Below are positions 13,065 to 58,464 of a stretch of 64,000 nucleotides of DNA, in pieces. The notes beneath the pieces were generated by a model, which saw only the letters and a list, made by a program, of their open reading frames with translations, was not told where the DNA came from and ran no database searches. Source of the stretch: Paroceanicella profunda (GTDB lineage Bacteria; Pseudomonadota; Alphaproteobacteria; Rhodobacterales; Rhodobacteraceae); the NCBI RefSeq assembly GCF_005887635.2, contig NZ_CP040818.1, forward strand, positions 3,874,501 to 3,938,500, written 5' to 3'. The translations under genes were made by a program, and so were the position numbers. Every line of letters starts with the position of its first letter. Position 1 is the stretch's first letter.

Positions 13065-13645
13065 GGTCACCTCTGTCTGGAAGGCAACCGCGCTGCACGC
13101 AGGCGCCGCCTCCTCACCCCCCGGGTCGCACCGGCGCCCTGTCCGGGAACCGGGGGGCAGCGCCCCGCGCGCGCATCACGCAATGGCCAGACTAACCGAT
13201 CGTGGAGATTTCGCCAGTCCTCGCGACCGCACGCGCGGCCCACGCGAGACGGGCACGGCCCTGGCAAGATGGGCACGGCCCACGCGAGACGAGCGCCCTC
13301 CCCGCGCGGCGGGGCCCGGTCCGGGCAGGACAGCCGCGGCCAGGCAGCACGGGCCCGGTCCCGGCGCGGCCAACTCCTCCACCCGGGAAGAACGGACGTG
13401 GCCAGACAGAATAGGCACGGGCGCGCACGACAGTCCGGGTCGGGCACGACAGTTCCGGGCGCGCACGACAGTCCCCGGCGGGTACGACAGGTACGGCGGG
13501 CAGGACAAGCCAGACCGGCACGGCCGGCGCGACAGCCCTGTCCACGCAGCGCGGGCGCGGCCCGCCCCGGGCAGGAGCGGGCCGCGCGTGGAAGATCCGG
13601 CCGGCACGGGTGCGGGGAGCGGGCCGTGCCGGCCGGGGGCTGCTC
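13065..13645. repeat. Intergenic gap with degenerate 20-bp and 19-bp tandem repeats
   Basis: Two short arrays lie in this gap. At 13221-13300 four 20-bp units alternate forms such as CACGCGAGACGGGCACGGCC and CTGGCAAGATGGGCACGGCC. At about 13421-13510 units spaced exactly 19 bp share the word ACGACAG (at 13427, 13446, 13465 and 13484), followed by a diverged copy near 13502. Open frames across the gap are repeat artefacts. The gap lies between the divergent start of the small membrane protein gene and the 3' end of the acyltransferase gene. Confidence 0.6.
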
Positions 13646-14881
13646 CTATTCCGGGCCCGGCGCATAGGCCGCGCGCAGAGGGCCCGTCCGGACGGCCGGT
13701 GCCATGCGCGGCCCGGCCGCCACCGCGCCCCGTGCCGGGCGGCGGCTGCGGCGCAGCGGGGCGCCGTTGAACAGGAACAGCATGAGCCGCGACTGCGCGA
13801 TGGCCTCGTGCAACAGCAGCGGCAGGACGATCCCCACGCAGCACAGCGCGAGGAATTCGAGGAACACGTTGCCCTCCACCGTGGTCAGCCACGCCCCCAT
13901 CAGGCAGACGACGGGCATGTGGAACAGGTAGATGGTGTAGGACGCCCGGCTCATCCGCGAGACAAGCCGGTTCTCCCGGTTGCAATACCGCCGGAACAGC
14001 CGCATCAGCTCGAAGGACACCAGCACGGAGAGCACCGCGGAGGTGGAGTACCACAGCAGCTTGCTGATCTCGCCGGGCTGGTTGAACGCCGTCGCGCAGC
14101 CCAGTGCCATCACGCCGGTGATCACGAAGCGGCTGCGCCCCGCCTCGGTGAGGTCCAGATAGCGGAACAGGAACCCGGTGGCGAAATAGGGCAGGAACAG
14201 CGCCCAGGCCTCCAGGTTCACGATGCCGAACAGGCGGAAGTCGAACCCGGTCAGCCGCTCCACGCCGTAGGTGCCCAGCCGCACCGCGAGCGTGTAGAGC
14301 ATGATGCCCACGCAGAACACGTAGAGATTCACCGGCCGCGCGGTGAGCTGTCGGAGCCCGCGCAGCGCGGCACTGTCGCGCAGGCTGTGCAGCGTGGCCG
14401 CGACGAGGAAGTAGAACACCAGCGCATAGAGGAACCACAGGTGGCCGACCCAGTTCTGGTTCACCTGCCGCAATTCGTGCAGGTATCCGGGCAGGATCAC
14501 GCCATCCGCCTCGCCCGAGGCGCGGAAATACTGGTGGGCCAGCATCACCACCGGGCTGATGAGCAGCGTGGCCACCGCCAGCGGCACCAGCAGCCGGGTG
14601 AGGCGCGACATCGTCCAGGCCCGGGTCGACATCTTGTGCAGCGTCAAGAAGGCCAGGATGCCGGAAATCATGAAGAAGGCCGGCATGCGGAAACTGTTGA
14701 TGAGGGAGGCGAAGTAGGTGAGCAACGCGCTCTTGTCATCTGAATGGATGAACCACTCCGTTCCCTGTGAATAGATGAGCGCCGCGTGATAGGGCACCCC
14801 GAGCGTCATCAGGAAGGCGCGCATCCAGTCGATGTGATGCATGCGCGGCTTGCCCGGCGCCGTCGCCGACGGTGAGGTCAT
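13646..14881 (-). CDS. Acyltransferase family 3 membrane protein
   Basis: 411 residues, about ten membrane helices. The N-terminal signature HIDWMRAFLMTLGVPYHAAL carries the conserved H/D/R pattern of the acyltransferase-3 family (OafA/NodX/OpgC). FRMPAFFMISGILAF near residue 62 is the second family block. Such enzymes move acyl groups onto envelope sugars or glucans at the inner membrane. The window also contains opgGH; a role in substituting those glucans is possible but not supported by proximity. The last 40 residues are low-complexity Arg/Ala/Pro and run into repetitive intergenic DNA. Confidence 0.8.
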   Translation of the reverse strand: MTSPSATAPGKPRMHHIDWMRAFLMTLGVPYHAALIYSQGTEWFIHSDDKSALLTYFASLINSFRMPAFFMISGILAFLTLHKMSTRAWTMSRLTRLLVPLAVATLLISPVVMLAHQYFRASGEADGVILPGYLHELRQVNQNWVGHLWFLYALVFYFLVAATLHSLRDSAALRGLRQLTARPVNLYVFCVGIMLYTLAVRLGTYGVERLTGFDFRLFGIVNLEAWALFLPYFATGFLFRYLDLTEAGRSRFVITGVMALGCATAFNQPGEISKLLWYSTSAVLSVLVSFELMRLFRRYCNRENRLVSRMSRASYTIYLFHMPVVCLMGAWLTTVEGNVFLEFLALCCVGIVLPLLLHEAIAQSRLMLFLFNGAPLRRSRRPARGAVAAGPRMAPAVRTGPLRAAYAPGPE

Positions 14882-16018
14882 GTCGTCATCCGCTTCCGAA
14901 AAGTTGCGATGTGGAACAGGGCGACGCGCCCGGCCGCAGCACGGCAGGGGACAGCGGCGCCGTCAGCACGCAACGGCCCAGGTCATCATGAAAAATGTGA
15001 AGAACTGGCAAATACGAACAGCAAGCATTCCGCGCGTAAGCTTTCGGGAACACTTCTATCGAAAAGCAAATCCGTACACGTGGCCGGCCGGGCAAACGCC
15101 CGGGGCATCCGCTCCCGTCATCGTCGATGACAGTTCACTGATCCCTGCAGGGTGGCTCCGGAACCGACCGGCACGACGCCCCTCATCCGCGGGATCTCCC
15201 CTCTCACCAGAATAGTTAAGAGGTATTTTTTCATAGTCAATTTAAATGAGAAATCTGCGGCGCCACCCCTCAAGGTTGTCCCGGACCGTTTATCGGCGGA
15301 TATTTGCCAGTGCTTTCAACCTTCAGGCATGTTTCTGCCGGATGCGCGCCAAGGTTGCAGAAATATGGAAACAGCCACTGGGCTTCGGGCGACGCCGTTC
15401 CCGGCATCGGGACAGCGGGCCGCGCGCTGCGCGGGCCGCCCGCGGGAGGGCGCGACATGGTGTCATCGCCCGGACCCTCGGGCCGGGGAGGCGGCGCATC
15501 GGCGCGCGGGAACCGATTCGCGGCCCGTGCCGCCGCGGCCCGGCACGGCGGCGCCCGCGCCGGCCCGGCCAGGCGCGGAACAGGCGCCGCGGCGCCGCCA
15601 CGGCCGCAGCCCCTTTCCACACCCCAAGGTTGAGGGATTTTGCCCAATACGTTGACAGGCAGCGCCCGAGGTGGATTAGTCTCGGTGACATGCCGTTATC
15701 GCACCCGGTGTCGAGTCGTTCTCCGGTCCGGTCCGACAGCGCAGAACGCACGGCTCCGGGAGGGAGACAGGTCGCCCAGCGCAGGGCCGCCGGACCACCC
15801 CCCCACCGAGCGAACGCCTGAAGCAGCGGCGCATGCACGCACCGCCGAGTAGTGTTTTTGAACAGGGCATGGAACGTGTGGAAAGAAGACGGACCGATGT
15901 GTCGCGCGTGTAGAGCGGGTCGCCTGTCCCGAACCCCGTCGGTGCTTCGCCGCCGCCGCGGGCCCGCCGCGCGGGCCGCACGACCGACACGCTCTCCGCC
16001 TCCGGCGCGGCCCTGCGC
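14882..16018. other. Long intergenic gap, no gene recognised
   Basis: About 1.1 kb between divergent genes. It contains an unusually AT-rich patch at about 15205-15270 within otherwise GC-rich DNA. A promoter-like TTGACA at 15652-15657 has TTAGTC 18 bases further on. GCGGGCCG words repeat near 15415-15440. Open frames here are Arg/Pro-rich and lack start signals. A regulatory RNA cannot be excluded, but I see no specific evidence for one. Confidence 0.4.
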
Positions 16019-18079
16019 ATGAGCGACACGCACCTCCTCCCGCCCGACTTCTCCGCGAGCCCCGTGATCGCCCGGGTGCGCCGCTCCGCGCTGGTCCTGG
16101 CCGCGATGGCCGCGGTGATCGCGCTGTTCACCCTGTTGCTGGGCTGGATAGCGGGCGTGCAGGCCCTGGTGCGCCTGGACCCGGATTTCCCCGCCATGGT
16201 TCCCGAAACCGCGCTGTGCATCATGCTCGGCGGACTCGGCGTGATATGGACGATCTGGAGGCCGCGACAGCTCGTGGTGCCGCAGGTCTGCGGCGGGCTG
16301 ATCCTTGTGCTGGTGGCCATGGCCCTCACCCAGCCCATCCGCACCATCGCCTTCCGCCCGCTGGACAGCATGTCCGTGGCCACCGCCCTGGCCAGCGTGC
16401 TGGTGGCCACGTGCCTGATGCTGCCGCGCGAGGGCGACCCGTCCCTCGCCCGGCTGCACACCACGCTGCAATCGCTCGGCCTGTCGGTGGTGATGGTGCC
16501 GGTGCTGGGATACATCTTCGACGCCGAAGCGCTGTTCGCGAATGCCGTCTACACCTCGATGGCCCTGCACACGGCGCTGGGGTTTCTCGCGCTCTTCCTT
16601 GCGCTGCTGTGCGAGCGGCCCGCCCAGGGCTGGGTGGGGGTGTTGCTGTCCCCCGAGCGCGGCAGCGAGATGGTGCGGCGCATCCTGCCGGTGATCATCT
16701 TCGGCCCGATCATCATGTGCAGCCTCACGCTCTACGCCACCTACCACGAATTCATGACGCCGAATTTCCGCCTGGCGGTGCTCACCTTCATGATGATCTG
16801 CGCCACCGGGGTGGCGGCGCTCCTCTTCGCGCACCAGACCAATCTCTCCGAGCGCCGGGCCGCGGCGGTGGAGGCCTCGCTGCGCCGCAGCGAACTGGCC
16901 CGCGCGCAGACGGAACTGGCCATGTCGCGCAGCCAGAAGGTAGAGGCCCTGGGAAAGCTGGTCGGCGGGGTGGCGCATGACTTCAACAATTCGCTGGCCG
17001 TGATCCTGGGAAATCTCGAGCTGCTGGAGGAGGATGACAGCGCCGCGGCGCGCCAGCGCTACATTTCGGAGGCCATTGCCGCCTCCAACAGCGCCGCCCA
17101 TCTCACCCGCCAGCTTCTGGCCTACGGGCGCCGGTCCCGGCTGGAATCCCTGCCCAACGTGCTTGACGATCTCATCACTCCCACGCTGGAGATGTTCCGC
17201 AGGGTGAACCCCGCGAACATCGAGATCGTCACCGACCTGGACACCGACCATGCCATCGTGATGCTCGACAGCGCCAACTTCCAGCAGGCGCTGCTCAACC
17301 TGCTCATCAACGCGCGTGACGCGATGCCGGCGGGCGGGCGGATCACCCTCTCCACCCGGGTGGAAACCCTCGCGCAGGAGAGCGTGGCGGGCTTCGACCA
17401 GTCGGAGGACCTGCCCCCCGGCACCTATGTCACCGTGAGCGTGCGCGACAACGGCACAGGCATGGACGCCGCCACGCTGAACCGCGCGGACGAGCCCTTC
17501 TTCACCACCAAGGGCATCCACGAGGGCACCGGGCTGGGCCTCTCCGTGGTGTCGGGCTTCTGCCGCCAGTCCGAAGGCGGCCTGCGCCTGCGCAGCGCCC
17601 CGGGGGCGGGCACCACGGTGTCGATGGCCTTCCCCCTCGCGCAATACGCGGACCCCCTGCCCGCCGTGCCGCGTCCCAGGCCCAGCGTGACCCCCGGGGC
17701 CGGCGCGGACATCCTCATCGTGGACGACGAGATCCGGGTGTCGCGCGTGATGGCGCGGCAGTTGCAGCTGGACGGCCACCGGGTGCGCATCGCCCTCAAC
17801 GCCGAGCAGGCGCTGAACGTGCTCAGCACCGAGGACGCCCCGGACCTGGTGCTCTCCGACCTGGTGATGCCCGGCGACATGCAGGGCCACGCGCTGGCCG
17901 AAACCATCCGCGAGCGCTGGCCGCAAACCCGGATCGTGCTGATGTCCGGCTACGAATCCGCGCGCCGACGCCGGGAGATCTTCGGGCTGCGCGACCTCGT
18001 CTTCCTGCAGAAGCCGGTGGACCGCGCCACGCTGCGCGCCACCGTCCTGCAGGCCCTCAACGGCGATGAGGCCGGCTGA
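16019..18079 (+). CDS. Hybrid sensor histidine kinase with C-terminal receiver domain
   Basis: 686 residues. The N-terminal third holds six to seven membrane helices (to about residue 275) and no recognisable periplasmic ligand domain. A short coiled coil leads to the phospho-acceptor box GGVAHDFNNSLAVILGNLEL (His near residue 320), then N, G1 (DNGTGMD) and G2 (GTGLGLSVVSGF) boxes of the ATPase domain. A receiver domain follows, with IVDDE, phospho-acceptor Asp in LVLSDLVMPG near residue 614, MSGY and LQKPV. The H-box is of the HDFNN class found in hybrid kinases. No partner regulator is adjacent, so the input and output are unknown. Confidence 0.88.
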   Translation: MSDTHLLPPDFSASPVIARVRRSALVLAAMAAVIALFTLLLGWIAGVQALVRLDPDFPAMVPETALCIMLGGLGVIWTIWRPRQLVVPQVCGGLILVLVAMALTQPIRTIAFRPLDSMSVATALASVLVATCLMLPREGDPSLARLHTTLQSLGLSVVMVPVLGYIFDAEALFANAVYTSMALHTALGFLALFLALLCERPAQGWVGVLLSPERGSEMVRRILPVIIFGPIIMCSLTLYATYHEFMTPNFRLAVLTFMMICATGVAALLFAHQTNLSERRAAAVEASLRRSELARAQTELAMSRSQKVEALGKLVGGVAHDFNNSLAVILGNLELLEEDDSAAARQRYISEAIAASNSAAHLTRQLLAYGRRSRLESLPNVLDDLITPTLEMFRRVNPANIEIVTDLDTDHAIVMLDSANFQQALLNLLINARDAMPAGGRITLSTRVETLAQESVAGFDQSEDLPPGTYVTVSVRDNGTGMDAATLNRADEPFFTTKGIHEGTGLGLSVVSGFCRQSEGGLRLRSAPGAGTTVSMAFPLAQYADPLPAVPRPRPSVTPGAGADILIVDDEIRVSRVMARQLQLDGHRVRIALNAEQALNVLSTEDAPDLVLSDLVMPGDMQGHALAETIRERWPQTRIVLMSGYESARRRREIFGLRDLVFLQKPVDRATLRATVLQALNGDEAG

Positions 18080-18109
18080 CACGCCCTGAGGCCGCATCCC
18101 CCGCCCAGG

Positions 18110-18340
18110 CCCCGCCGCCACTGGCGGCAGCCAAGGCTCCCCGGCGCCACCGGCGACAGGAATGTCTCCCACCGCAACCGGCGGCAAGCACGTCTCCTCA
18201 CCGCCACCGGCGGCCGCCACGTCCCCCACCGCCACCGGCGGCAAGCACGTCCCCCACCGCCACCGGCGGCCGCCATGTCCCCCACCGGCACCGGCGCGGG
18301 ACAGTCGCCCCGCCGCCACCAGTGGCAGGAAGGTCTTCCC
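18110..18340 (+). repeat. Tandem array of 28-29 bp hairpin units (8 copies)
   Basis: The word ACCGG (or ACTGG/ACCAG) recurs at 18120, 18149, 18177, 18206, 18234, 18262, 18290 and 18318, so steps are 28 or 29 bp. The core of most units is CCGCC-ACC-GGCGG, a 5-bp stem with a 3-base loop, followed by AAGCACGTCCCC or CCGCCACGTCCCC. The array starts about 40 bp after the stop of the histidine kinase gene. There are no spacers, so it is not a CRISPR array. The rest of the gap to 18574 is GC-rich with decayed similar words. Confidence 0.8.
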
Positions 18341-18574
18341 GGCGGGTGGCAGCGGAGGCTTGCCGGCGCTCCCGCCGGCCCCGACGGCCCGCCATGCGGC
18401 CCGATGGCCACCGCACCGCTCCTCCGGCCGGTCCGGCGCAGCACGGCGGCAGCCGGGCTGGCGGGAGTGTGCCCGCGGCGGGGACACGGTCTGGACATTC
18501 CGGCCCCGGGCCGTCAATTTCGAGGCATATCCGTCATCGCCCCGCCGGAGAGCCGCCTGTGCGCCGGATGAGCG

Positions 18575-19501
18575 ATGTCCAGCGCAAACACGCGCCCGCA
18601 GGGCCGCGCCCTCAAGGTCATGCTGCAGACGATGCCCAACCCCTCGCCCCAGGACGCTGCGGATCTCGCCACCGCTCCCGCCCGGACCGACGGTGCGCTG
18701 TCCGCCGCCGCGCGCAACCGCACGGCCGGCGCCGACGGGTTCCCCGACCCCGACACCTCCGGCTTCCTGCGCCTGAGAGCGGACAAGTCCGGGCGCGAGA
18801 CCCTCTCCGCCTGCGGCATCAGAATCGCGCCGGGGGCCGACCTGTCGAACACCGTGCTGCTGCACCCCGATCTCAGGCGCAGCCCGCTGAAGCTGGATTT
18901 CGGGCGCACCCGCGACAACCTGGTGGTGCTCGGCCATGCAAGGCGCATCTCCGGCGCGATGCATTTCACGGGGAACGCGAACACCTGCGTGCTCTACGGC
19001 TGCAAGATGCAGAAGGGCCGGCACGGCTCCTACACCCTCAGCCTGCGCGTCGTGGGCGAGGGCTGCACCTTCTACGCCGGGCCGAACACCACCATGGGCG
19101 GCGTGAACGCCTGGCTGCAGGGCGCGGCCAGCACCCTGCTGATCGGCGAGGATTGCATGCTCTCCTGGGACGTGATGCTGCGCACCGGGGACGCCCACAG
19201 CGTGATCGACGTGGGCAACCGCGAAGTCACCAACCTCGCGCGGGACCTGCTGATCGGCCCGCATGTCTGGCTGGGATACGATGTCCACGTGATGAAGGGC
19301 GTGGAGATCGGCGCGGGATCTCTCGTCAGCTCGATGTCGGTGGTCACCCGCAGCATTCCGCCGCTCACGGCCGCCGCCGGCATCCCCGCGAAACCGATCC
19401 GCTCCGGCACCACCTGGTCGCGCGCCGAGCACGCCACGCCCGAGCAGATCGAGGAGATCCTCGCCCGGCCCTACCTCGCCGTGCACGCCCCCGCCCCCTG
19501 A
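18575..19501 (+). CDS. Left-handed beta-helix (hexapeptide) acyltransferase-like protein
   Basis: 308 residues. The middle and C-terminal parts show hexapeptide-type turns, for example LLIGEDCMLSWDVMLRTGD and LLIGPHVWLGYDVHVMKGVE, ending in IPAKPIRSGTTWS, a common ending of the LbH acetyltransferase fold. His/Asp residues in RTGDAHSVIDV and the H in LIGPHVWLG could be catalytic. The first 60 residues are low-complexity, and an ATG at 18620 would remove 15 of them. Proteins of this type acylate sugars in surface polysaccharides. The substrate is unknown and no polysaccharide genes are adjacent. Confidence 0.72.
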   Translation: MSSANTRPQGRALKVMLQTMPNPSPQDAADLATAPARTDGALSAAARNRTAGADGFPDPDTSGFLRLRADKSGRETLSACGIRIAPGADLSNTVLLHPDLRRSPLKLDFGRTRDNLVVLGHARRISGAMHFTGNANTCVLYGCKMQKGRHGSYTLSLRVVGEGCTFYAGPNTTMGGVNAWLQGAASTLLIGEDCMLSWDVMLRTGDAHSVIDVGNREVTNLARDLLIGPHVWLGYDVHVMKGVEIGAGSLVSSMSVVTRSIPPLTAAAGIPAKPIRSGTTWSRAEHATPEQIEEILARPYLAVHAPAP

Positions 19502-19650
19502 GGCCGCGCGCCCTGGTCTCCTGCCCCGGCCGCGCCGTGCACAGGCGCGCTATTCTTTAACGCATCCGGTGCAAAATCAGGGTATACATGCAGGCAGGGG
19601 TTTGTCCGTGTGCGAACGGGATCGGGTGCGGAGTGAGGGAGCACATCCAG

Positions 19651-20091
19651 ATGACGGAGTACCAGAAATGGCTCGATACGATCAGTGCGAGCTACAAGGA
19701 CGGCGATTACGACACTTACGTTGAGTGCTTCGAGCTGCCGTTCACCGTGATTACCAACACCGCGAACATTCTTGTGACGGAGAAGGACGAGCTGCGGGCG
19801 GGCTTCGACGCGCTGTGCCACATGCTGCGCGGCGAGGGAATCACCGATTCGATCCGGATCGCCTCCAATGTCCGCAACCTCGGCCCGAACCTGATGATCG
19901 GCCGGTACGACACCCACCTGCTGCGCGGCGCCAACCGGGTGTTCGACCCGCTGCTGAGCGCCACCACCCTGCGGCGCAGCCCGGACGGGCAGTGGCGGGC
20001 CTGCAGCTTCACGCTGGATCTCGGGAATGCGCAGTGGCCCTTCTACACGCTGATGCTGCCGCAGACATCCGCCACGATCGTCGCCGCCTGA
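19651..20091 (+). CDS. NTF2-like (SnoaL-type) hypothetical protein
   Basis: 146 residues from the ATG at 19651, which has GGGAG eight bases upstream; a longer frame from 19588 adds an unlikely cysteine-rich leader. The pattern WLDTISASYKDGDYDTYVECFELPF, followed by a beta-rich second half (NLMIGRYDTHLL, DGQWRACSFTLDL), resembles the cone-shaped NTF2/SnoaL fold. Members may be small enzymes or ligand-binding proteins, so no function can be assigned. It is followed by a 7-bp hairpin. Confidence 0.62.
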   Translation: MTEYQKWLDTISASYKDGDYDTYVECFELPFTVITNTANILVTEKDELRAGFDALCHMLRGEGITDSIRIASNVRNLGPNLMIGRYDTHLLRGANRVFDPLLSATTLRRSPDGQWRACSFTLDLGNAQWPFYTLMLPQTSATIVAA

Positions 20092-20135
20092 TCCGGCCCC
20101 GCGGAGCCCTTCCGTGGATGATTGGCAGGCCTGAC

Positions 20136-20154
20136 GAGAGAGCATTACTCTCTC
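20136..20154 (+). terminator. Hairpin terminator-like element after the NTF2-like gene
   Basis: Perfect 7-bp stem GAGAGAG / CTCTCTC with loop CATTA, followed by TTGTC. It lies 44 bases after the stop codon. Confidence 0.45.
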
Positions 20155-20246
20155 TTGTCGAAATCGGCTAAGTGTCCGCCGACCGGGTGCCCACCGGTGC
20201 CGTGACTCGACTTCAACGCCACTCCGAGAGTTCACACCGCGCCGCA

Positions 20247-20615
20247 ATGGACACACAGAACGATCACCCTTACGACCCCCTCTCCGCCGGCGACCCCGCT
20301 CCGGACCCGGAGTCCGCCTGCGGACAGGGCGTGGACGACGCCAGCCTCTCCCGCAGCATCAGCCTGCTTGCCGGCGTCATGCAGCGCAGCCCCAAGGCCG
20401 TCGCCGGCTCGCGGGACGCGCTGATCGCCAGCCTGTCGGAGCAACTGGTCCGCATGCCGGGAGCAACGGGAACATCGCCCGAGGGGGCTGCCCCGCTGCC
20501 CCCCAGCATGACCCCCTGCCAGACGCCCCGCCCCCGCAAGACCGGCTGCAACGACGATCATTGCGGCCTGCAGATCGACGGTCACTGCTCCTTCGTCCGC
20601 CCCCCGACCGGCTGA
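20247..20615 (+). CDS. Hypothetical protein, doubtful
   Basis: A 122-residue frame from the ATG at 20247; a GTG at 20172 would extend it. The middle (SLSRSISLLAGVMQRSPKAVAGSRDALIASLSEQLVR) looks like a normal amphipathic protein segment. The tail contains CNDDHCGLQIDGHC, a possible metal-binding Cys/His cluster. No family is recognised. It ends about 50 bp before a long 7-mer microsatellite. It could be a real small gene or chance. Confidence 0.35.
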   Translation: MDTQNDHPYDPLSAGDPAPDPESACGQGVDDASLSRSISLLAGVMQRSPKAVAGSRDALIASLSEQLVRMPGATGTSPEGAAPLPPSMTPCQTPRPRKTGCNDDHCGLQIDGHCSFVRPPTG

Positions 20616-20666
20616 CATCCGTGCCGCCCCGGCCGGCCGCCGTCGCCTCGCGCCCGCTGGTCCCAC

Positions 20667-20860
20667 GGCTGGTGGCTGGTGGCTGGTGGCTGGTGGCTGG
20701 TGGCTGGTGGCTGGTGGCTGGTGGCTGGTGGCTGGTGGCTGGTGGCTGGTGGCTGGTGGCTGGTGGCTGGTGGCTGGTGGCTGGTGGCTGGTGGCTGGTG
20801 GCTGGTGGCTGGTGGCTGGTGGCTGGTGGCTGGTGGCTGGTGGCTGGTGGCTGGTGGCTG
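20667..20860 (+). repeat. Heptanucleotide microsatellite, 27.7 perfect copies
   Basis: GGCTGGT is repeated without error from 20667 to 20855 (27 copies), plus five more bases to 20860, 194 bp in all. The array begins about 50 bp after a doubtful ORF and ends 56 bp before the ATG of the MarR-GNAT gene. Seven is not a multiple of three, so any frame running through it cycles through three registers. Open frames across it (GGWWLVA repeats) are artefacts. Perfect identity indicates recent expansion by slippage. Confidence 0.95.
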
Positions 20861-20897
20861 TGAATGCCGCGCGGGCCGCTTGACCGCAAGATATTAT

Positions 20898-20911
20898 CTG
20901 ACGTAAGTCAG
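20898..20911. promoter_or_regulatory. Palindromic operator candidate before the MarR-GNAT gene
   Basis: CTGAC-GTAA-GTCAG, a perfect 5-bp inverted repeat, ends five bases before the ATG at 20917 and lies in the only AT-rich stretch of the gap. MarR regulators commonly bind such sites at their own promoters. Confidence 0.5.
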
Positions 20912-20916
20912 GTATC

Positions 20917-21795
20917 ATGACCATCACGCCCGTCGCCCGCTTCCGTCGCTTCAACCGTGCCGTCACCACCGAGGTGGGCGCGCTGGACAGCTCGTTTCTG
21001 GGCCGCGGCCGCCCGTTGGGCGCGGCGCGGGTGCTCAATGCCGTCGGACACGGGCATGCGGATATCGCCGATCTGCGCGCCTATCTCGGGCTCGATTCCG
21101 GGCTGATGAGCCGCCTCCTGCGCGGGCTGGAGGCCGAGGGCCTCCTCTCCACCGCCCCGCATCCGCAGGACGCCCGGCGCCGCGTCGCCGCGCTGACCGC
21201 CGCGGGAAGGCGCGAGTTCGAGGCCTACGAGACACTCTCGGATGCCCATGCCGAGGCGCTGCTCGCCAGCCACCCGCACCCGGAGGCGCTGCTGGCCGCG
21301 ATGGACCTGGTGGCCTCCGCCCTCGGCCGGTCCCGGATTGCGATCCACCGCACCGACCCGCTCAGCGACACGGCGCGCCACTGCCTCGGCGCCTATTACG
21401 CGGAGCTTGGCCGGCGCTTCGCGCAGGGGTTCGACGTGGCGCGCTCGCGCGATCCGGAGGCCGCGGACATGATCGCCCCGCGCGGCGCCTTCCTCGTGGC
21501 GCTGTCGGACGGCCTGCCCATCGGCTGTGCCGCGCTGAAGGGCACCGGTGGCGCGGTGGGGGAGGTGAAGCGGGTCTGGGTGGCGCCCGCGGCGCGGGGG
21601 CTCGGGCTGGCCCGGCAACTCATGCAGGAGGTGGAGGACGCGGCCCGCGCGCTCGGCATGACCACCCTGCGGCTGGACACGAACCGCGCCGCGCTGCCCG
21701 AGGCGGTCCGGCTCTACCAGCGCAGCGGCTGGACGGAGATCGACCGGTTCAACGACGATCCCTACCCCGACACCTTCTTCGAAAAGCCGCTCTGA
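20917..21795 (+). CDS. MarR-type regulator fused to a GNAT acetyltransferase
   Basis: 292 residues. The N-terminal half is a winged helix of MarR type: RFRRFNRAVTTEVGAL dimer helix, recognition region LDSGLMSRLLRGLEAEGLL, wing HPQDARRRVAALTAAG. The C-terminal half is a GNAT fold with acetyl-CoA loop VAPAARGLGLARQLMQ near residue 225 and the closing LYQRSGWTEIDRFNDDPYPD. This MarR-GNAT fusion is a known two-domain family of uncertain substrate. The gene is monocistronic, with a palindrome next to its start and a 7-mer microsatellite just upstream. Confidence 0.85.
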   Translation: MTITPVARFRRFNRAVTTEVGALDSSFLGRGRPLGAARVLNAVGHGHADIADLRAYLGLDSGLMSRLLRGLEAEGLLSTAPHPQDARRRVAALTAAGRREFEAYETLSDAHAEALLASHPHPEALLAAMDLVASALGRSRIAIHRTDPLSDTARHCLGAYYAELGRRFAQGFDVARSRDPEAADMIAPRGAFLVALSDGLPIGCAALKGTGGAVGEVKRVWVAPAARGLGLARQLMQEVEDAARALGMTTLRLDTNRAALPEAVRLYQRSGWTEIDRFNDDPYPDTFFEKPL

Positions 21796-21845
21796 AGCGC
21801 GGATGCCCGCGCCCCTCCGCCAGCCGCACCGCGCTGCCGGCGCCT

Positions 21846-21863
21846 GCCCCGGAAAAGCGGGGC
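21846..21863. terminator. Hairpin between the MarR-GNAT gene and tRNA-Pro
   Basis: GCCCCG / CGGGGC with loop GAAAAG, placed between converging transcripts. It may end either one. Confidence 0.4.
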
Positions 21864-21879
21864 CCGGTGAATGAGGAGA

Positions 21880-21956
21880 TGGTCGGGGCGAGAAGATTCG
21901 AACTTCCGGCCTCTGGTACCCAAAACCAGCGCGCTACCAAACTGCGCCACGCCCCG
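21880..21956 (-). tRNA. tRNA-Pro (anticodon TGG)
   Basis: On the minus strand the sequence starts CGGGGCGTGGCGCAG and folds as a cloverleaf: 7-bp acceptor stem CGGGGCG / CGCCCCG, D-arm with GGTAGCGC, anticodon stem CTGGT / ACCAG with loop TTTGGGT (anticodon TGG, proline), and T-arm with GTTCGAATC. The discriminator is A and the CCA end is encoded (complement of TGG at 21880-21882). Confidence 0.95.
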
Positions 21957-22001
21957 ACATGCGCCCATGTACCCCGGAGTCTCCCGGAAGGGAAGAGCGC
22001 A

Positions 22002-22493
22002 TCACTCGCCCGAGCAGGGCCAGGCGGCGACCGCGGGGTCGAAGGCCGGGTGGCGCATCACGTCGCCCGCCTTCAGCCCCAGCCGCGCGGCGAGACCGCC
22101 GTTGATCTCCAGCACCGCCAGCGCCGGGCCTTCGGAGGGGATGGGTGTGAGATCCCCCGGCACCGCCTGAGGATGGATGTGCCGCACCGTGCCCGTGGCG
22201 TCCAGAAACAGCATGTCGAGCGGAATCAGCGTGTTCTTCATCCAGAAATGCGCCTCGGCGGGCTGGTCGTAGACGAACAGCATCCCGGAGAATTTCGGCA
22301 TGCTCTCGCGGAACATCAGCCCCTGCGCCCGCTCGGCGGCATCATCGGCAAGTTCGACGGAGAAGCGCACTGTCCCGAAGCCGCCGCGCAGATCGGCCGT
22401 GTCGGGGGCACAGGCGGCGGAGGCGGCGCCACTGGCCGCGAGGATCAGGGCAACGCCCAGGGCGGCAGCCAGTCGGGCCGGGGATTTCCTCAT
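22002..22493 (-). CDS. DUF192 family exported protein
   Basis: 163 residues with a Sec signal peptide (hydrophobic core 8-22, cleavage after ASAA near 27). The DUF192 core is present: [20 protein letters not shown], then [17 protein letters not shown], and [18 protein letters not shown] near the end. The family is widespread and its biochemical role is not settled. It forms a same-strand pair with the cold-shock protein gene across a 34-bp gap. Confidence 0.85.
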
Positions 22494-22527
22494 TCACGCA
22501 CTCCGTTCGCGCCGGCGGCTCCGGAGG

Positions 22528-23082
22528 TCAGGCGATGGTGCCGCCCCGGGCCTGGTTCTCACCGATGGCCCTCTCCCAGACACAGACCTCGGCGGCCATG
22601 TGCCCGCGCGGGCCCTCGATGATGCGTACCGCCACAGCCTCGCCCGGCGCAAGGTCCCCGATCGCACTGCAGCGCAGCACTTCCATGTGAACGAAGACGT
22701 CGCTGGGGTCTCCGAACACGTTCACGAAGCCGAAGCCCTTCACCTTGTCGAACCATTTCACCCGCGCGGGCTGCAACGGCGTGTCGACATCCGCGGCCGC
22801 GACCAGTTCGGTCGGCCGGGGTTCCCTGTTCTGGGTCGGGATATCGGCAGCGGCGGGCTTCTCCATGGACAGGATGCTCACGGCTTGCCGGCCCCTGTCC
22901 GTCGTCTGCGTCTCGAGAGTAACCGCGCTCCCCTCGACCGCGGTCGCGTATCCGTGCGCCCGCAATATGTTTGCATGGAGCAGGATATCTCCCCCTCCAT
23001 CGTCAGCTATCACGAAGCCGTAACCCTTCGAGGTGTCGTACCATTTGACGACACCCACAACAACTTTGCCCAAATCAGGCAT
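22528..23082 (-). CDS. Protein with two cold-shock domains
   Basis: 184 residues with two nucleic-acid-binding cold-shock domains. The first contains GVVKWYDTSKGYGFVIADD (RNP1 KGYGFV) near the N-terminus. The second contains ARVKWFDKVKGFGFVN near residue 105, with DVFVHMEVL as RNP2. Two ATG codons are adjacent. The second (23082) is used because GGAGGG lies three bases upstream of it but abuts the first. Double-CSD proteins are typical of alphaproteobacteria and act on RNA structure under cold or stationary stress. The upstream region to 23256 is relatively AT-rich. Confidence 0.88.
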   Translation of the reverse strand: MPDLGKVVVGVVKWYDTSKGYGFVIADDGGGDILLHANILRAHGYATAVEGSAVTLETQTTDRGRQAVSILSMEKPAAADIPTQNREPRPTELVAAADVDTPLQPARVKWFDKVKGFGFVNVFGDPSDVFVHMEVLRCSAIGDLAPGEAVAVRIIEGPRGHMAAEVCVWERAIGENQARGGTIA

Positions 23083-24122: not shown

Positions 24123-24232
24123 CGGTGCGGTGCGGTGCGGTGCGGTGCGGTGCGGTGCGGTGCGGTGCGGTGCGGTGCGGTGCGGTGCGGTGCGGTGCGG
24201 TGCGGTGCGGTGCGGTGCGGTGCGGTGCGGTG
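24123..24232 (+). repeat. Pentanucleotide microsatellite, 22 perfect copies
   Basis: CGGTG is repeated 22 times without error over 110 bp. It begins 54 bp after the stop of the lipoprotein gene and ends about 90 bp before the 3' end of the SDR gene on the other strand. It therefore lies between convergent genes, and frames through it are artefacts. Confidence 0.95.
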
Positions 24233-25066: not shown

Positions 25067-25183
25067 TGGGTCTCCGATGGAATGGGGTACGGGGGTGAGA
25101 GTGGTGCCGGCCCGGGGGAAAGGCAAGGCCCCCCGGGGCCCGCTGGGCCGCGCCCGCGGCAGACCCGCCGCGCCGCCGGGCCA

Positions 25184-25455
25184 AGTGCACCTCCGGTGCA
25201 GCCTCAGGCAAAGCGCATCTCCGGTACGGCTTCAGGCAAAGCGCACCTCCGGTGCGGCTTCAGACAAAGCGCACCTCCGGTGCGATGTCGGACCACGCGC
25301 GCCTCCGGTGGGACGTCGGAACAGGCGCGCCTCCGGTGCGGCCTCAGGCCCGCGCACCTGCGGTGCAATCTCAGGTCAGCGCACCTGCGGTGCAATCTCA
25401 GGTCAGCGCACCTGCGGTGCAATCTCAGGTCAGCGCACCTGCGGTGCGACGTCAG
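25184..25455. repeat. Tandem array of 27-28 bp hairpin units (10 copies)
   Basis: CGGT recurs at 25194, 25222, 25250, 25278, 25306, 25334, 25361, 25388, 25415 and 25442: five steps of 28 bp, then four of 27 bp. Units 7-9 are identical (25361-25441), while units 1-6 differ from each other. The core is GCACC-TCC-GGTGC or GCACC-TGC-GGTGC, a 5-bp stem with a 3-base loop. The last unit contains the pdxH stop codon (25452-25454), so the array grows directly out of the 3' end of pdxH. Confidence 0.9.
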
Positions 25456-26069
25456 GGATTGAGACGCGCCACCTCCCATTCCGTCGCGGAAGGGTCCGCC
25501 CGGGTCCAGCGAAAGCGGTCGTGCAGGCGGTGCGCGCCGTCGGCCCAGAACTCGATCTCCACCGGGCGGATGCGGAACCCGCCCCAGTGCGGCGGACGCG
25601 GCGGGTTGGGGCCCTTGAGGGCCGTTACCTTCGCCACCTCGGCCATCAGCGCCCCGCGCGACTTCAGCGGGCGGGACTGTTTCGAGGCCCAGGCCCCGAG
25701 GCGGCTGGCAAGCGAGCGGGAGGCGTAATAGGCGTCGGCGGCCGGGCCGTCCTCCTTCTCCACCAGCCCGCGCACCCGCACCTGCCGGCGCAGGCTCTTC
25801 CAATGCATCACGAAGGCGGCCTTGCCGGTGGCGAGGATCTCGCCGGCCTTCGCGCTCTCGTAATTGGTGTAGAACACGAATGCGTCATCCTCGATGTCCT
25901 TGAGCAGGACCATGCGCACGTTCGGCAGGCCCTCGGGAGACACCGTGGCAAGGGCGATGGCGTTCGGGTCGTTGATCTCGCTCGCCGTGGCCTCGGCAAG
26001 CCAGTCGCGCACCAGCGCAAACGGGTCCGTGGCGGCGAATTTCCCCGATGGGGCCTCTGTCTGCGACAT
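25452..26069 (-). CDS. pdxH: Pyridoxamine 5'-phosphate oxidase
   Basis: 205 residues, normal PdxH length. It oxidises pyridoxamine or pyridoxine 5'-phosphate to the cofactor PLP using FMN and O2. Seen: [26 protein letters not shown] (FMN site; first part quoted in two pieces, [14 protein letters not shown] and [11 protein letters not shown]), [14 protein letters not shown], the [11 protein letters not shown] segment, [10 protein letters not shown], and a C-terminal block [16 protein letters not shown] followed by R and LNP. The start MSQTEAPSG at 26069 fits family N-termini; the longer frame is low-complexity. Its 3' end coincides with the hairpin array. Confidence 0.93.
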
Positions 26070-27600: not shown

Positions 27601-27639
27601 CCCGACCGCCGGGCGCTCTTCTTGAGCGTGTCCGGCAGC

Positions 27640-28105
27640 CCACGGTCTCTGCTCCGCCTCCCCCGGGCCCCTCTCCCCCGCGCACGTCGCGCCGCCCGGT
27701 CTCGGCCTCCGCGCATGGCCCGTCTCTCCTGCGCGTGCGGCGTCAGCCGGTCTCTCCTCCGCGTAGCGCGCCTCGCCAGCGCGCTTGGCAGCGCCCGGTC
27801 TCCCCCACGGGCACGGCCCGTCTCTCCTTCGCGCGGGGCTCCGGCCGGCCCCTCCTCCGCCTCCCGAGCAGCGCGTCCCTCCAGCGCGCCCGGCGGCGCC
27901 CGGTCTCCCCTCACGGGCCCGGCCCGTCTCTCCCTCGCGTGGGGCTCCGGCCGGTCCCTCCTCCGCCACCCACGTAGCGCGTCCCTCCAGCGCGCCCGGC
28001 GGTGCCCGCCCCCCTCACGCGCATGGCCCCTGCTTCGGGCGCGGCGGCTGCCGGCCTCTCCTCAGTGTCCCGAGCGGGGCGCGTCTCTGCCGCGCGCCCG
28101 GTGCC
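27640..28105. repeat. Long-period tandem repeat (about 99-106 bp, 4+ copies)
   Basis: The word CCCGGT or its variant recurs at 27695, 27794, 27899, 28005 and 28097. The copies starting at 27791 and 27896 are nearly identical over about 105 bp. Inside each copy are four shorter blocks of about 26 bp around GCCCGTCTCTCC and GCGCGG. The array fills the gap between gpt and the TerB-like gene. The proline/arginine/serine-rich frames here follow the repeat and are not genes. Confidence 0.75.
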
Positions 28106-28691: not shown

Positions 28692-28839
28692 GCGACGCTC
28701 CCTCTCCGTCTCGCCGCACTCCCGAAGCAGGACCTGTTCCTGGTGCCCGCCCTTGCGGCTGCCTCGGGACACTCACTGGCGGCGTCTCCCGCCATCTGCA
28801 GGCCCTCATCCTCACCGGCCCTCTCCAGAAAATCCGGCT

Positions 28840-29115
28840 CGCGTTACCAGCCTTGCGCCCGGCGGAGGCTGTTTCCGTCACCAGCCGTGCGCCTGGCGGA
28901 GGTCGCTCCCGTCACCGGCCGTGCGGCCGGCGGGGCCTGCTCAGGTCCCCAGCTTTGCGCCAGGCGGGGATTGCTCCCGTCACCAGCCGTGCGCCCGGCG
29001 GGGGTTGCTCCGGTCCCCAGCTCTGCGCCGGGCGGGGGCTGCTCCGGTCCCCAGCTTTGCACCGGGCGGGCGCTGCTCCCGTGATCGGCCGTGCACCCGG
29101 CGGGGGCCCTTGCCC
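28840..29115. repeat. Tandem array with exact 34-bp period (8 copies)
   Basis: GGCGG recurs at 28861, 28895, 28929, 28963, 28997, 29031, 29065 and 29099, exactly 34 bp each time. The unit is close to TGCGCCCGGCGGGGGTTGCT followed by CCCGTCACCAGCC, with two alternating endings (CCGTCACCAGCC and CGGTCCCCAGCT). It lies between the TerB-like gene and the 3' end of the dctPQM operon. There are no spacers and no coding potential, since 34 is not a multiple of 3. Confidence 0.88.
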
Positions 29116-30643: not shown

Positions 30644-30647
30644 TGGA

Positions 30648-32457: not shown

Positions 32458-33210
32458 GGATGTATCCTCCCAGGATCTTCATTGGCCGGCATCTGCCGGC
32501 ATTCGGCCGGCGTTGACCGGCTCACGCAGGGATAACAGCAGAGCGGAGGGCCGCCGCGCAAGCATCACGATCACGCCGCTTTGAGGCGGGCTTTTTCATT
32601 TCATTTCAATATCTTGCCTTACCATGCACATACCGCACCGCACCATGCGGAAGACAGGGTGTGGAAAATCGCACGGATCGCCGCCGGGCATTCCGATTTC
32701 CCGCCCGCGGCCTGACAGCGCACCGAATCACGCCCCGCGCATCGCCCCCGCGAAGCGCGGCCACACGTCGGCGCGGCCCGCGGCCGCCCACGGGCCCGGG
32801 CATCGGGCGCATCGGGCGCCTCGCGACATGCGCGGGACGCGTGGCCGCGGTTGCGCACCGTGCAAGTGCACACCCGAATGCCCCGCCCCTGACCGGGGAG
32901 CACAGCGGGGGCGACGCGCCGCGACATGCGCAGGGAGACTGCACGCGGGAGCGCCGCCTGGCATGCGGGCAGAGCGGCGCCCACCGGTCGCCGTGCGGCA
33001 CGCGCGCGGCACCGCCGGTGCGTTCCGAAGGCGTGTGCGCAGGGCGTCGCCCACGGGGCGCCGCGCGGCATGCGCGCGCGGCGCCGCCAGTGCGCTCTGG
33101 TGACAGGTGAAAAGAACGGACCTCGCAGGCACTTTGCGGCACGCCGGGGCACGCGGCGCCGGCGGTGCGCTCCGACGGCGGTGCACTCCGGCGGCGGGGG
33201 TCGCCTCCGG
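32458..33210. repeat. Intergenic gap between dctP and dctD with degenerate 70-bp repeats
   Basis: About 750 bp. The part next to dctP (32480-32640) is the leader and probable promoter region, with an AT-rich patch at 32590-32625. From about 32920 the sequence is repetitive: GCGGCA recurs at 32995, 33065 and 33136, and CGCCCAC at 32978 and 33048, giving a period of 70-71 bp over three copies. Frames across it are Arg/Ala-rich repeat artefacts. No sigma-54 consensus (GG-N10-GC type) was found by eye before dctP. Confidence 0.55.
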
Positions 33211-56476: not shown

Positions 56477-56477
56477 G

Positions 56478-58085
56478 TCAGCCCTCCACCGAGCGGCCAC
56501 GCAGCGCGAACAGCCCGCGCGGACGTTTCTGGATGAACAGGATGATGGCGACGAGCACGATGATCTTGCCCAGTACGGCACCGGTGAACGGCTCGAGGAA
56601 CTTGTTGACCACGCCCAGGGTGAAGGCCCCGGCCAGCGCGCCCCAGAGGTTTCCCGCCCCTCCGAAGACCACCACCATGAAACTGTCCACGATGTAGCTC
56701 TGCCCGAGGTTGGGCGAGACGTTGTCGATCTGGCTCAGCGCCACGCCCGCGAGCCCGGCCACCCCGGCGCCGAGACCGAAGGTCATCGCGTCCACCCATC
56801 CGGTGCGGATGCCCATGTTCGCGGCCATGGCGCGGTTCTGGGTGACGGCGCGCATTTGCAGGCCCATCGGCGTGCGCTTGAGCAGCGCCATCAGCGCGCC
56901 GAACACCACCAGCGCGAAGACGATGATCCACATGCGGTTCCAGGTCACGGTCATCGCCCCCACCTGGAAGGCGCCGGACATGAACTCCGGGTTGCCCACC
57001 TCGCGGTTGTTGGGGCCGAAGAGGGTACGCACCGCCTGCTGGAGGATGAGCGACACGCCCCATGTGGCGAGCAGCGTCTCCAGCGGACGGCCATAGAGGA
57101 AGCGCACGATGCCGCGCTCGATGGCCACGCCCACCGCACCGGCCACCAGGAAGGCGAGCGGGGCCGCGATCAGCAGCGACCAGTCGAACAGCCCCGGCAG
57201 GTGGGTACGGATCACCTCCTGCACCACGAAGGTGGTGTAGGCGCCCAGCATGACGAGCTCGCCATGCGCCATGTTGATCACCCCCATCACCCCGAAGGTG
57301 ATGGCGAGCCCGATGGCCGCCAGCAGCAGCACCGAGCCGAGCGACAGCCCGTACCACACGTCCTGCCCGATGCCCCAGAGGCGCTGCACCCGGGCGATCT
57401 CGTCGATGGCCGCCTGCGCCGCCGCACCCAGGTCCGGGTCGGAGGCATAGCGGGTGAGGATGGACTGGGCCTCGCGGTCGCCCCGGTCGGCCAGCACGTC
57501 GATGGCGCCCAGCCGCTGCTCCACCGGCCGGTCCGACATCAGCATGGCCGCGGCAAGCGCCTGCTCCATCACCGCGCGCACGGAGCCGTCGGTCTCCCTC
57601 GCCAGCGCCTGCTCCAGCGCCGGGATCTGCTCCGCATCGGGGGAGCGGAATCCGGCCTCGGCGGCGGCGCGGCGCTTTTCCGGGTCCGGGTTGGTGAGCG
57701 ACAGCACGCCGATGGCGGCGCGCAGGTCGCGGCGCAGGCCATTGTTCACCCGGATGCGCTCCGTGTCGCGGCTGGTGACCGTGCCGATCTCCTCGCCGGT
57801 CAGCGCATCGGTGGCAATGGCGTCGCGCCCGCGCTTGGACATGATGACGATGCGCCCGTCGGCCTTCATCTGCTCCAGGTCGCCGTTGAGCAGCGCGGTC
57901 AGCACGGCCACGGCGCGCTCGTCGCCCGTTGCGGCGATGGCGGCCGCGGTTTCGCCGCGGTCGGTGTAATTGCCCTCGGGGAGAGCGTTGACGAGGCTGT
58001 CGAAATCCTGTGCGCGGGCGGGCTGGAACAGCGACGCGGCGCAGACCAGAACGAGGGCGATCAGCGGGGCGAGGGCGTGGCGCAT
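56478..58085 (-). CDS. urtB: Urea ABC transporter permease UrtB
   Basis: 535 residues. The N-terminal part of about 230 residues is exported (signal peptide ending near residue 25, ARAQ) and contains helical HEAT-like repeats (AIAATGDERAVAVLTALLNG), a known UrtB extension. The LivH-like permease follows: GVMGVINMAHGELVMLGAYT, GVSLILQQAVRTLFGPNNRE and RAVTQNRAMAANMGIRTGWV. It is separated from urtA by 380 bp holding a hairpin array. Confidence 0.94.
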   Translation of the reverse strand: MRHALAPLIALVLVCAASLFQPARAQDFDSLVNALPEGNYTDRGETAAAIAATGDERAVAVLTALLNGDLEQMKADGRIVIMSKRGRDAIATDALTGEEIGTVTSRDTERIRVNNGLRRDLRAAIGVLSLTNPDPEKRRAAAEAGFRSPDAEQIPALEQALARETDGSVRAVMEQALAAAMLMSDRPVEQRLGAIDVLADRGDREAQSILTRYASDPDLGAAAQAAIDEIARVQRLWGIGQDVWYGLSLGSVLLLAAIGLAITFGVMGVINMAHGELVMLGAYTTFVVQEVIRTHLPGLFDWSLLIAAPLAFLVAGAVGVAIERGIVRFLYGRPLETLLATWGVSLILQQAVRTLFGPNNREVGNPEFMSGAFQVGAMTVTWNRMWIIVFALVVFGALMALLKRTPMGLQMRAVTQNRAMAANMGIRTGWVDAMTFGLGAGVAGLAGVALSQIDNVSPNLGQSYIVDSFMVVVFGGAGNLWGALAGAFTLGVVNKFLEPFTGAVLGKIIVLVAIILFIQKRPRGLFALRGRSVEG

Positions 58086-58464
58086 CTCCGGGATCCGTTC
58101 TTTCCTTGGCCCTGAACGCGCGAATGGCGCCGGGCGAATGCGGTCACGGGCGCACTATGCCGGCTCCCGTGAGGCGGAGGATGCAGGGCGGCGACACGCG
58201 CCCCCGCCCTGCATCGGACCGTCAGCCTGCCGGCGCAGGCCGGTGGCATTCGACCTGCCGGCGGACGCCGGTTTCGGTCAACTTGCCGGCCCGGGCCGGC
58301 GGCTTAAGCATGCCGGCGGGAGCCGGTGCCGTCAGCGTACCGACCGGCACCAGAGCCTTCAGCACGCCGGCGACCATCGGTGCTTCAAGCGTGCCGGCAA
58401 ACACCGGCGGGCCAAAATCCTGCCGGCGGGCTTCAGGCCCGCCGGCGAGACGTTCCGGCGCCGC
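58086..58464. repeat. Tandem GCCGGC-hairpin array between urtA and urtB
   Basis: From 58228 the word TGCCGG (or CGCCGG/TACCGA) recurs at 58228, 58256, 58284, 58311, 58339, 58365, 58392 and 58421, with a partial copy at 58440. Steps are 26-29 bp. Most units form a small hairpin such as GCCGGC-GGGA-GCCGGT. The array ends about 20 bp from the urtA stop, so it is transcribed as the 3' flank of urtA within the operon. The remaining 140 bp next to urtB show nothing clear. Confidence 0.85.

What the first reader, a model, noticed from the sequence alone, without database searches (positions are those of the whole stretch)
13221..58445. A class of locus-private intergenic tandem arrays, many with small hairpins
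At least seven gaps contain imperfect tandem arrays: 13221-13510 (20 and 19 bp), 18110-18340 (28-29 bp), 25184-25455 (27-28 bp), 27640-28105 (about 105 bp), 28840-29115 (34 bp), 32920-33190 (70 bp) and 58228-58445 (26-29 bp). Each is homogeneous inside and unlike the others, so they are not copies of one mobile repeat. Three share one design: a 4-6 bp GC stem with a loop of a few bases plus a 10-17 base linker. Most begin within about 60 bp of a stop codon. This looks like repeated local birth and homogenisation of hairpin arrays, perhaps templated by a hairpin at the gene end. Function could be mRNA 3' protection, transcription pausing or nucleoid binding, or none.
Basis: partly seen in the sequence, partly recalled or inferred. 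Interest (0 to 1): 0.75.

Follow-up and report, generated by a model that had tools for sequence, protein, structure and literature searches.

The report
Private intergenic tandem arrays, newly born
The gaps between genes of this deep-sea bacterium are rich in short tandem-repeat arrays, nearly every one with its own sequence and most of them missing from its closest sequenced relative, so they look like recently born, fast-changing satellites rather than one mobile repeat or a designed hairpin element.

Summary
The arrays are real. The genome is Paraoceanicella profunda D4M1 (contig sizes match). In 1.08 Mb of chromosome I found 125 intergenic arrays of at least 60 bp. All arrays of at least 80 bp run at 11.1 per 100 kb, against 2.5 in the sister genome and 8 in 1.88 Mb of other relatives. 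They are nearly all private: 16 of 7750 pairs similar, controls 3-7. Of 278 orthologous gaps, 22 have an array only here, 6 only in the sister, 4 in both (units differ) and 246 in neither; own-only gaps are longer by a median 265 bp, arrayless ones by 0. Outgroups suggest two arrays are gains. Arrays are scarce in divergent gaps and common in convergent ones (6 and 44 of 125; expected 24.9 and 26.5). The hairpin design does not hold: stems barely exceed unit shuffles. A second class, perfect 5-9-bp arrays, has 29 members with 29 units. Best reading: ongoing slippage-type birth, expansion and decay of satellites, kept where selection tolerates them. Cause unknown. A strong, unusually recent variant of known bacterial satellites.

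The parts
13236..13507 (.). Degenerate 20-bp then 19/38-bp arrays in a tandem gap, 138 bp downstream of the stop of the minus-strand acyltransferase-domain gene 13646-14842
   Evidence: TRF; gene model; Pfam; sister gap 300 bp against 581 here
18110..18329 (.). 28/57-bp array starting 30 bp after the stop of the hybrid histidine kinase gene 16019-18079
   Evidence: TRF; gene model; Pfam; no orthologous sister gap was available
20667..20860 (.). Perfect 7-bp array, 27.7 copies, in a tandem gap, 51 bp after a gene end (not in the original finding)
   Evidence: TRF; context
24123..24232 (.). Perfect 5-bp array, 22 copies, in a convergent gap; absent from the sister (own gap 253 bp, sister 99 bp); not in the original finding
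25179..25456 (.). 27-28-bp array, 10 copies, reaching into the stop codon of pdxH (25452-26069, minus strand); own gap 385 bp, sister 135 bp, two relatives with an SDR-family gene at the same place 3 and 45 bp
27622..28105 (.). About 106-bp array (TRF core 27765-28029) after the phosphoribosyltransferase-domain gene 27091-27594; own gap 608 bp, sister 105 bp
28837..29107 (.). 34/102-bp array in the convergent gap between a TerB-domain gene and a DctM transporter gene; own gap 560 bp, sister 215 bp
32920..33197 (.). Highly decayed array with 70-75-bp spacing, ending about 14 bp from the stop of the sigma-54 response-regulator gene 33211-34518; own gap 753 bp, sister 269 bp
58221..58445 (.). 26-29-bp array (TRF core 58221-58290), its far end about 20 bp from the stop of the periplasmic binding protein gene 58465-59745; own gap 379 bp, sister 268 bp

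Best explanation
The arrays are bacterial micro- and minisatellites that are continually born, expanded and lost in the intergenic DNA of this genus. Shown: nearly all are unique in sequence; most of those that could be compared are absent from the orthologous gap of the sister species, while a smaller number are present only there; where both have one the units differ; the array accounts for most of the extra gap length; two can be polarised as likely gains with outgroups; they are scarce in genes and in divergent (promoter) gaps. Inferred: a chance short duplication or slippage event near a gene end grows by replication slippage or unequal exchange. Short units (5-9 bp) slip often and so stay perfect; long units change seldom and accumulate mutations until they are unrecognisable. 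Location is set mainly by selection: insertions that break a coding frame, promoter or ribosome-binding site are removed, so survivors sit downstream of stop codons and between convergent genes. What raises the rate in this genus over its family is not identified.
For: Empty sites: 278 orthologous gaps give 22 own-only, 6 sister-only, 4 both, 246 neither; median length differences (own minus sister) +265, -87, +340 and 0 bp. In the 4 shared gaps period and consensus differ, e.g. perfect GCTGAGG x22 here and GGCCGAGT x12 in the sister. Clean insertion at C1:3846212: a 352-bp gap, 273 bp of it array, where the sister has a 4-bp gene overlap, with TGAGCG at both ends of the insert; in the 2 of 5 outgroup loci where the same two genes are neighbours the aligned ends are 29 and 36 bp apart, with both termini still to be fitted in, so there is no room for an array. 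Privacy: 16 of 7750 pairs similar, 3-7 in controls, the strongest being short-unit arrays with similar units; 29 perfect short arrays have 29 different units. Density of all arrays of 80 bp or more, coding included: 120 in 1,078,500 bp (11.1 per 100 kb), sister 10 in 404,767 bp (2.5), relatives 7 in 1,477,205 bp and 1 in 400,000 bp. Placement of 125 intergenic arrays: convergent 44 (26.5 expected by gap length), tandem 75 (73.7), divergent 6 (24.9), p=2e-6; in tandem gaps 52 of 75 lie nearer the stop. Copies range from perfect to 65% alike, and single arrays pass from variant copies to a perfect run. Plasmid contigs have them too: 8 arrays of 80 bp or more in six 20-kb stretches.
Against: A seed copy of the unit in the arrayless gap is recognisable in only 3 of 22 cases, so slippage from a pre-existing duplication is not seen directly. 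Of the own-only arrays, 8 of 24 have adjacent copies 25-32% different, as much as or more than the 24% fourfold-site divergence between the species: those were born near or before the split and lost in the sister, or were imperfect at birth. Shared gaps are more frequent than independence gives (4 observed, p=0.009), so some gaps are favoured. No candidate repair loss separates this genus from relatives: MutS, RecJ and XseA are present, and a strong SbcC match is missing here but also in 18 of the 21 genomes searched. Copy-number variation within the species could not be tested.
Confidence: 0.66

Rival explanations
1. The arrays are selected for a function at gene ends, for instance cytosine-rich loading sites for Rho-dependent termination, insulation between convergent genes, or 3' protection of mRNA; hairpins or base skew matter and sequence identity does not.
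For: 3' and convergent placement. Arrays in tandem gaps are more pyrimidine-rich on the gene strand than arrayless gaps (0.558 against 0.511, p=5e-5). Of 13 terminator-like matches in 13201-33200 (7.1 expected), three fall in or at the edge of arrays: 25270-25284, 13415-13428 and 28834-28850.
Against: Hairpins are barely above unit shuffles. The share of C>G arrays (49 of 75) equals that of arrayless gaps (162 of 247). Of the 26 orthologous gaps with an array here the sister does without one in 22. A terminator-like stem already lies between stop and array at 27599-27615, and another at 29188-29201 between array and gene. Selection against promoter damage alone predicts the placement.
Confidence: 0.12
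2. The arrays are old, inherited from the genus ancestor, and the sister has lost them by deletion between copies.
For: 8 of 24 own-only arrays have copies as diverged as the two species are at fourfold sites. At C1:3846212 a deletion between the two TGAGCG repeats would give the sister's sequence exactly.
Against: At that locus two outgroups also lack room for an array, and the gap beside pdxH is 3 and 45 bp in two relatives (an SDR-family neighbour, so orthology is likely but not proven). Perfect short-unit arrays are also own-only. The sister has its own private arrays (6 of 278 gaps).
Confidence: 0.12
3. A dedicated enzyme (reverse transcriptase, polymerase or transposase) writes new arrays into gene ends.
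For: Abundance limited to this genus in my sample; a clean insertion boundary; one reverse transcriptase in the genome.
Against: Units are nearly all private, so there is no common template. The reverse transcriptase matches Drt8, a defence family, in a low-GC stretch, and 12 of 21 genomes searched carry a reverse transcriptase match. No family B polymerase was found in 15 genomes, own included; Ku is absent here and present in the sister.
Confidence: 0.06
4. The arrays are assembly artefacts.
For: Two perfect 7-bp arrays in one gap have exactly equal length (183 bp each), a coincidence I cannot explain.
Against: The published assembly is PacBio plus Illumina at 431-fold (passages read); imperfect arrays are not expected from consensus error; the draft sister also has such arrays.
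Confidence: 0.02

Closest known systems
Satellites of satellite-rich bacteria in the survey of Subirana and Messeguer 2019 (PMC6749651; abstract, first part, bacteria and methods sections read), notably Burkholderia pseudomallei/mallei and Clostridioides difficile
   Same: Many short satellites; GC-rich 6-8-bp microsatellites in Burkholderia; unique, unrelated satellites in C. difficile. The highest bacterial value in their Table 1 is 23 per Mb; my rough version of their criterion (pure short-unit arrays left out) gives 19.5 per Mb here, 7.4 in the sister and 0 in 1.88 Mb of relatives. Units above 30 bp are 9 of 21 here, close to their 42.6% for bacteria.
   Different: Unlike Burkholderia (families of short units, 0-7% above 30 bp) the arrays here are nearly all private and many are long-unit; and the sister's empty sites show that most compared arrays are recent.
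Tandem repeats of archaeal Borg elements (PMC9879509; abstract, sections 2.1.2 and 2.1.3 and first part of the discussion read)
   Same: Pervasive, essentially unique unit in each region, arising independently, rarely conserved in the closest relative, some starting within gene ends.
   Different: Borg arrays are perfect, A-rich, in extrachromosomal archaeal elements, and about half lie in genes; these are GC-rich, mostly imperfect, mostly intergenic and chromosomal.
G-rich heptamer repeats of Xanthomonas and Nostoc (PMC4692102; abstract, introduction and one result section read)
   Same: Heptameric arrays over-represented in intergenic regions, under-represented between divergent genes.
   Different: [quoted passage not shown] here 29 perfect short arrays have 29 units and most compared arrays are not shared.
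TAACTGA repeats of Beggiatoaceae (PMC4679880; abstract read)
   Same: Intergenic heptamer direct repeats.
   Different: One conserved unit, mostly just before start codons; here unrelated units, more often toward stop codons.

Membership tests
Bacterial mini-/microsatellites | Head-to-tail copies of one unit at a locus, above chance | tested here: met
Bacterial mini-/microsatellites | Copy number differs between strains (VNTR) | not testable with these tools
   Only one genome of the species was available; the sister comparison shows presence or absence, not copy number
Satellites by the published criterion (four or more repeats of a decamer, 60% of equal length) | Density in the range of satellite-rich bacteria | tested here: met
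   19.5 per Mb by my approximate reimplementation against 2.3-23 per Mb for the bacteria in their Table 1
Borg-type tandem repeats | Unique unit per region and rarely shared with the closest relative | tested here: met
Borg-type tandem repeats | Perfect, A-enriched units, about half in genes | tested here: not met
   100 of 128 arrays below 90% between copies; GC 75.5% over 76 arrays; 125 intergenic against 23 in predicted genes
Dispersed palindromic repeats (REP-like) or one mobile repeat | Copies of one sequence family at many loci | tested here: not met
   16 of 7750 array pairs similar, controls 3-7
Dispersed palindromic repeats (REP-like) or one mobile repeat | Hairpin as the core of the unit | tested here: not met
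   Mean stem 4.35 against 4.06 in unit shuffles; 5 of 84 units at p<=0.05
Xanthomonas/Nostoc G-rich heptamers | One G-rich heptamer type conserved between relatives at the same sites | tested here: not met
   29 perfect arrays with 29 units; different units in shared gaps

The most novel reading that the evidence does not exclude
The genus has a specific, still unidentified activity, or the loss of one, that makes new tandem arrays in intergenic DNA at a rate far above its family, some of them imperfect at birth: a bacterial chromosome behaving like a Borg element. The Paraoceanicella pair, with paired empty and filled sites, would be a natural model for how satellites begin.
Probability: 0.2. 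Interest if true: 0.8.

Novelty: new variant of a known kind. Interest (0 to 1): 0.55.

Why it matters
How a satellite starts is hard to study because its empty ancestral site is seldom known. Here a pair of species, 24% apart at fourfold sites, offers 28 orthologous gaps filled in one and empty in the other in the part sampled alone, in a cultured bacterium. It also warns against reading function into intergenic hairpins or arrays in very GC-rich genomes, and shows that array content can differ strongly between sister species.

Tried and rejected
Hairpin design: 84 units (one with no defined fold score) against unit shuffles; rejected. Seed in the arrayless gap: 3 of 22 below 0.05; inconclusive. 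Polar growth: one search used a fixed lag and a wrong assumption on fork direction; repeated with indel tolerance and skew-based direction: homogeneous end toward the stop in 25 of 40 (p=0.15), in fork direction 28 of 68 (p=0.18); rejected as a rule. Mutagenic formation: gene 3' ends beside arrays are less like the sister's (p=0.018; 5' ends p=0.13), but those genes are less conserved throughout and the edge effect is not significant (p=0.28 and 0.54); rejected. Loss of repair genes: MutS matches in 21 of 21 genomes, RecJ in 15 of 15 and XseA in 15 of 15, own included; SbcC strong in only 3 of 21, not in own or sister. Family B polymerase 0 of 15; Ku 2 of 15, the sister but not own. One mobile repeat: rejected. 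My first privacy control compared unordered real pairs with ordered shuffled ones; one search replaces it with like-for-like controls and all 125 arrays, and finds a few more similar pairs (16 of 7750), the strongest between short-unit arrays. Literature searches: in the titles and abstract beginnings listed I saw no paper on these arrays in Paraoceanicella or the Rhodobacterales; three lists were cut (12 of 13, 20 of 77, 12 of 25). The genome paper has no occurrence of 'repeat' or 'intergenic' in its main text. Limits: the own sample is 1,078,500 bp of a 4,039,866-bp chromosome and includes the window where the finding was made (regions A and C, picked without regard to it, give 10.0 and 9.5 arrays of 80 bp or more with units of 10 bp or more per 100 kb). 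The sister sample for densities is two contigs, 404,767 bp, of a draft in which long perfect arrays may be under-represented; one further 20-kb sister stretch, without arrays (L183), was left out. Gaps without collinear neighbours in the sister, overlapping by 150 bp or more there, or over 3 kb were dropped before the count of 278. Genes come from a gene finder I wrote, not from the published annotation. That single-strand exonucleases and SbcCD stabilise repeats and hairpins is recalled knowledge; the names transporter ATPase and hydrolase at C1:3846212 are my reading of the translations.
Full report
What the window holds. TRF confirms six of the seven listed arrays at score 40 or more and a direct-repeat search confirms the seventh, a decayed array with 70-75-bp spacing. 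All lie in gaps between predicted genes. Two perfect microsatellites lie in the same stretch, 20667-20860 and 24123-24232. The window is part of a 5,468,583-bp genome in seven contigs whose contig sizes equal those published for Paraoceanicella profunda D4M1, a piezophile from the Mariana Trench, assembled from PacBio and Illumina reads (passages of PMC7002103). The nearest named relative in the genome collection is Oceanicella sp. SM1341 (PdxH 93% identical). Its contig has the same length, 196,103 bp, as contig C82 of G001, the only other genome held for the genus, so I take the two to be the same genome.

Is it more than chance? In regions A (C1:1-400000) and B (C1:3780001-4038500, including the window) I found 63 and 38 intergenic arrays with units of 10 bp or more, against 6-14 and 4-6 in five dinucleotide shuffles each. 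Over A-D (1,078,500 bp) there are 125 intergenic arrays of 60 bp or more and 23 in predicted genes. All arrays of 80 bp or more run at 11.1 per 100 kb here and 2.5 in the sister (10 in 404,767 bp); 79 loci of named records around pdxH have 7 in 1,477,205 bp, and 20 stretches of 18 other family members have 1 in 400,000 bp. By an approximate reimplementation of a published satellite criterion the figures are 19.5, 7.4, 0 and 0 per Mb; the highest bacterial value in the published table is 23 per Mb (PMC6749651). Plasmid stretches carry them as well (8 arrays in six 20-kb stretches).

Are they private? Among 68 arrays in A and B 4 of 2278 pairs are similar at E<=1e-4. With all 125 intergenic arrays of A-D it is 16 of 7750, against 3-6 with shuffled and 7 with reversed queries; the strongest pairs are short-unit arrays with similar units, and the pdxH array shares 41 nt at 85% with one at C1:152948. 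So a few may be related, but there is no dominant family. Own-genome searches with two window arrays return the array plus two and one weak hits of 42-46 bits. A second class, perfect arrays with units of 5-9 bp (mode 7), has 29 members of 50 bp or more in 1.08 Mb, with 29 different units; the sister has 4 in 405 kb, and at 60 bp or more the 79 relatives' loci have none with such units.

Are they new? I compared orthologous gaps with two sister contigs. Of 278 gaps (109 and 169; gaps without collinear neighbours, or over 3 kb, were dropped), 22 have an array only in D4M1, 6 only in the sister, 4 in both, 246 in neither. Own gaps are longer by a median 265 bp in the first class; arrayless gaps differ by a median of 0. 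The 22 to 6 excess has p=0.004, and shared gaps are more frequent than independence gives (p=0.009). In the 4 shared gaps period and consensus differ; in one of them a 21-bp inverted match at E=0.002 is all that links the two arrays. At C1:3846212 a 352-bp gap, 273 bp of it array, separates a transporter ATPase gene from a hydrolase gene (names by my reading) that overlap by 4 bp in the sister. In 2 of 5 outgroup loci the same two genes are neighbours, with aligned ends 29 and 36 bp apart, too close for an array. The gap beside pdxH is 385 bp here, 135 in the sister, 3 and 45 in two relatives whose neighbour is also of the SDR family. So these two look like gains. Against a simple picture, adjacent copies in 8 of 24 own-only arrays differ by 25-32%, at or above the 24% fourfold divergence of the species: these are about as old as the split, or were imperfect when born.

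Where do they sit? Convergent gaps hold 44 arrays (26.5 expected by gap length), tandem 75 (73.7), divergent 6 (24.9), p=2e-6; in tandem gaps 52 of 75 lie nearer the upstream stop (p=0.001). Within 60 bp of a stop are 43 of 119, only somewhat above the 34.2 expected from random placement in the same gaps. Selection against damage to promoters and start regions explains this without any special targeting. Genes beside arrays are also less conserved throughout, in line with weaker constraint.

Is there a hairpin design? For 84 intergenic arrays with units of 15-60 bp the best stem averages 4.35 bp against 4.06 for shuffled units (p=0.04); 5 of 84 are at p<=0.05, about what chance gives. Arrays in tandem gaps are somewhat pyrimidine-rich on the gene strand, and three of 13 terminator-like matches in a 20-kb stretch fall in or at the edge of arrays: weak leads toward a role in termination that I do not press.

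How they most likely arise. The spectrum from perfect short-unit arrays to nearly unreadable long-unit ones, arrays that pass from variant copies to a perfect run, and paired empty sites fit birth by slippage or local duplication, expansion, and decay. The step from empty gap to first duplication is inferred: the unit is recognisable in the arrayless gap in only 3 of 22 cases. I found no repair gene whose loss sets the genus apart, no family B polymerase, and one reverse transcriptase, Drt8-like and probably for phage defence.

Comparison with the known. This is the known kind 'bacterial satellite', at a density near the top of the published survey, combined with the private, independent birth described for Borg repeats (abstract, two result sections and the first part of the discussion of PMC9879509 read). 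It differs from conserved heptamer systems (PMC4692102; PMC4679880, abstract). I rate it a new variant: well supported as a phenomenon, open as to cause and effect.

Noticed in passing
C1:3870815-3870997 and C1:3871060-3871242 (about 3.7 and 3.4 kb before the window): Two perfect 7-bp arrays with different units in one gap have exactly the same length, 183 bp; probably coincidence.
   Followed up: partly
C1:957524-959161 (L170:7524-9161): A 545-aa reverse transcriptase in a low-GC stretch, best PADLOC match Drt8 (E 2e-148).
   Followed up: partly
G001:C23:116849-117619: The sister genome carries a Ku gene; of the 15 genomes searched only it and one other have one, D4M1 does not.
   Followed up: no
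C1:2022511-2023078: In one convergent gap a 7-bp array switches its unit from TGTTCCC to TGAGCCC, followed by a 15-bp array that grades from strongly diverged copies to a perfect run.
   Followed up: partly
arrays in predicted genes, regions A-D: Of 23 arrays of 60 bp or more that fall in predicted genes, 21 have units divisible by three; 27 bp is the commonest (9).
   Followed up: no
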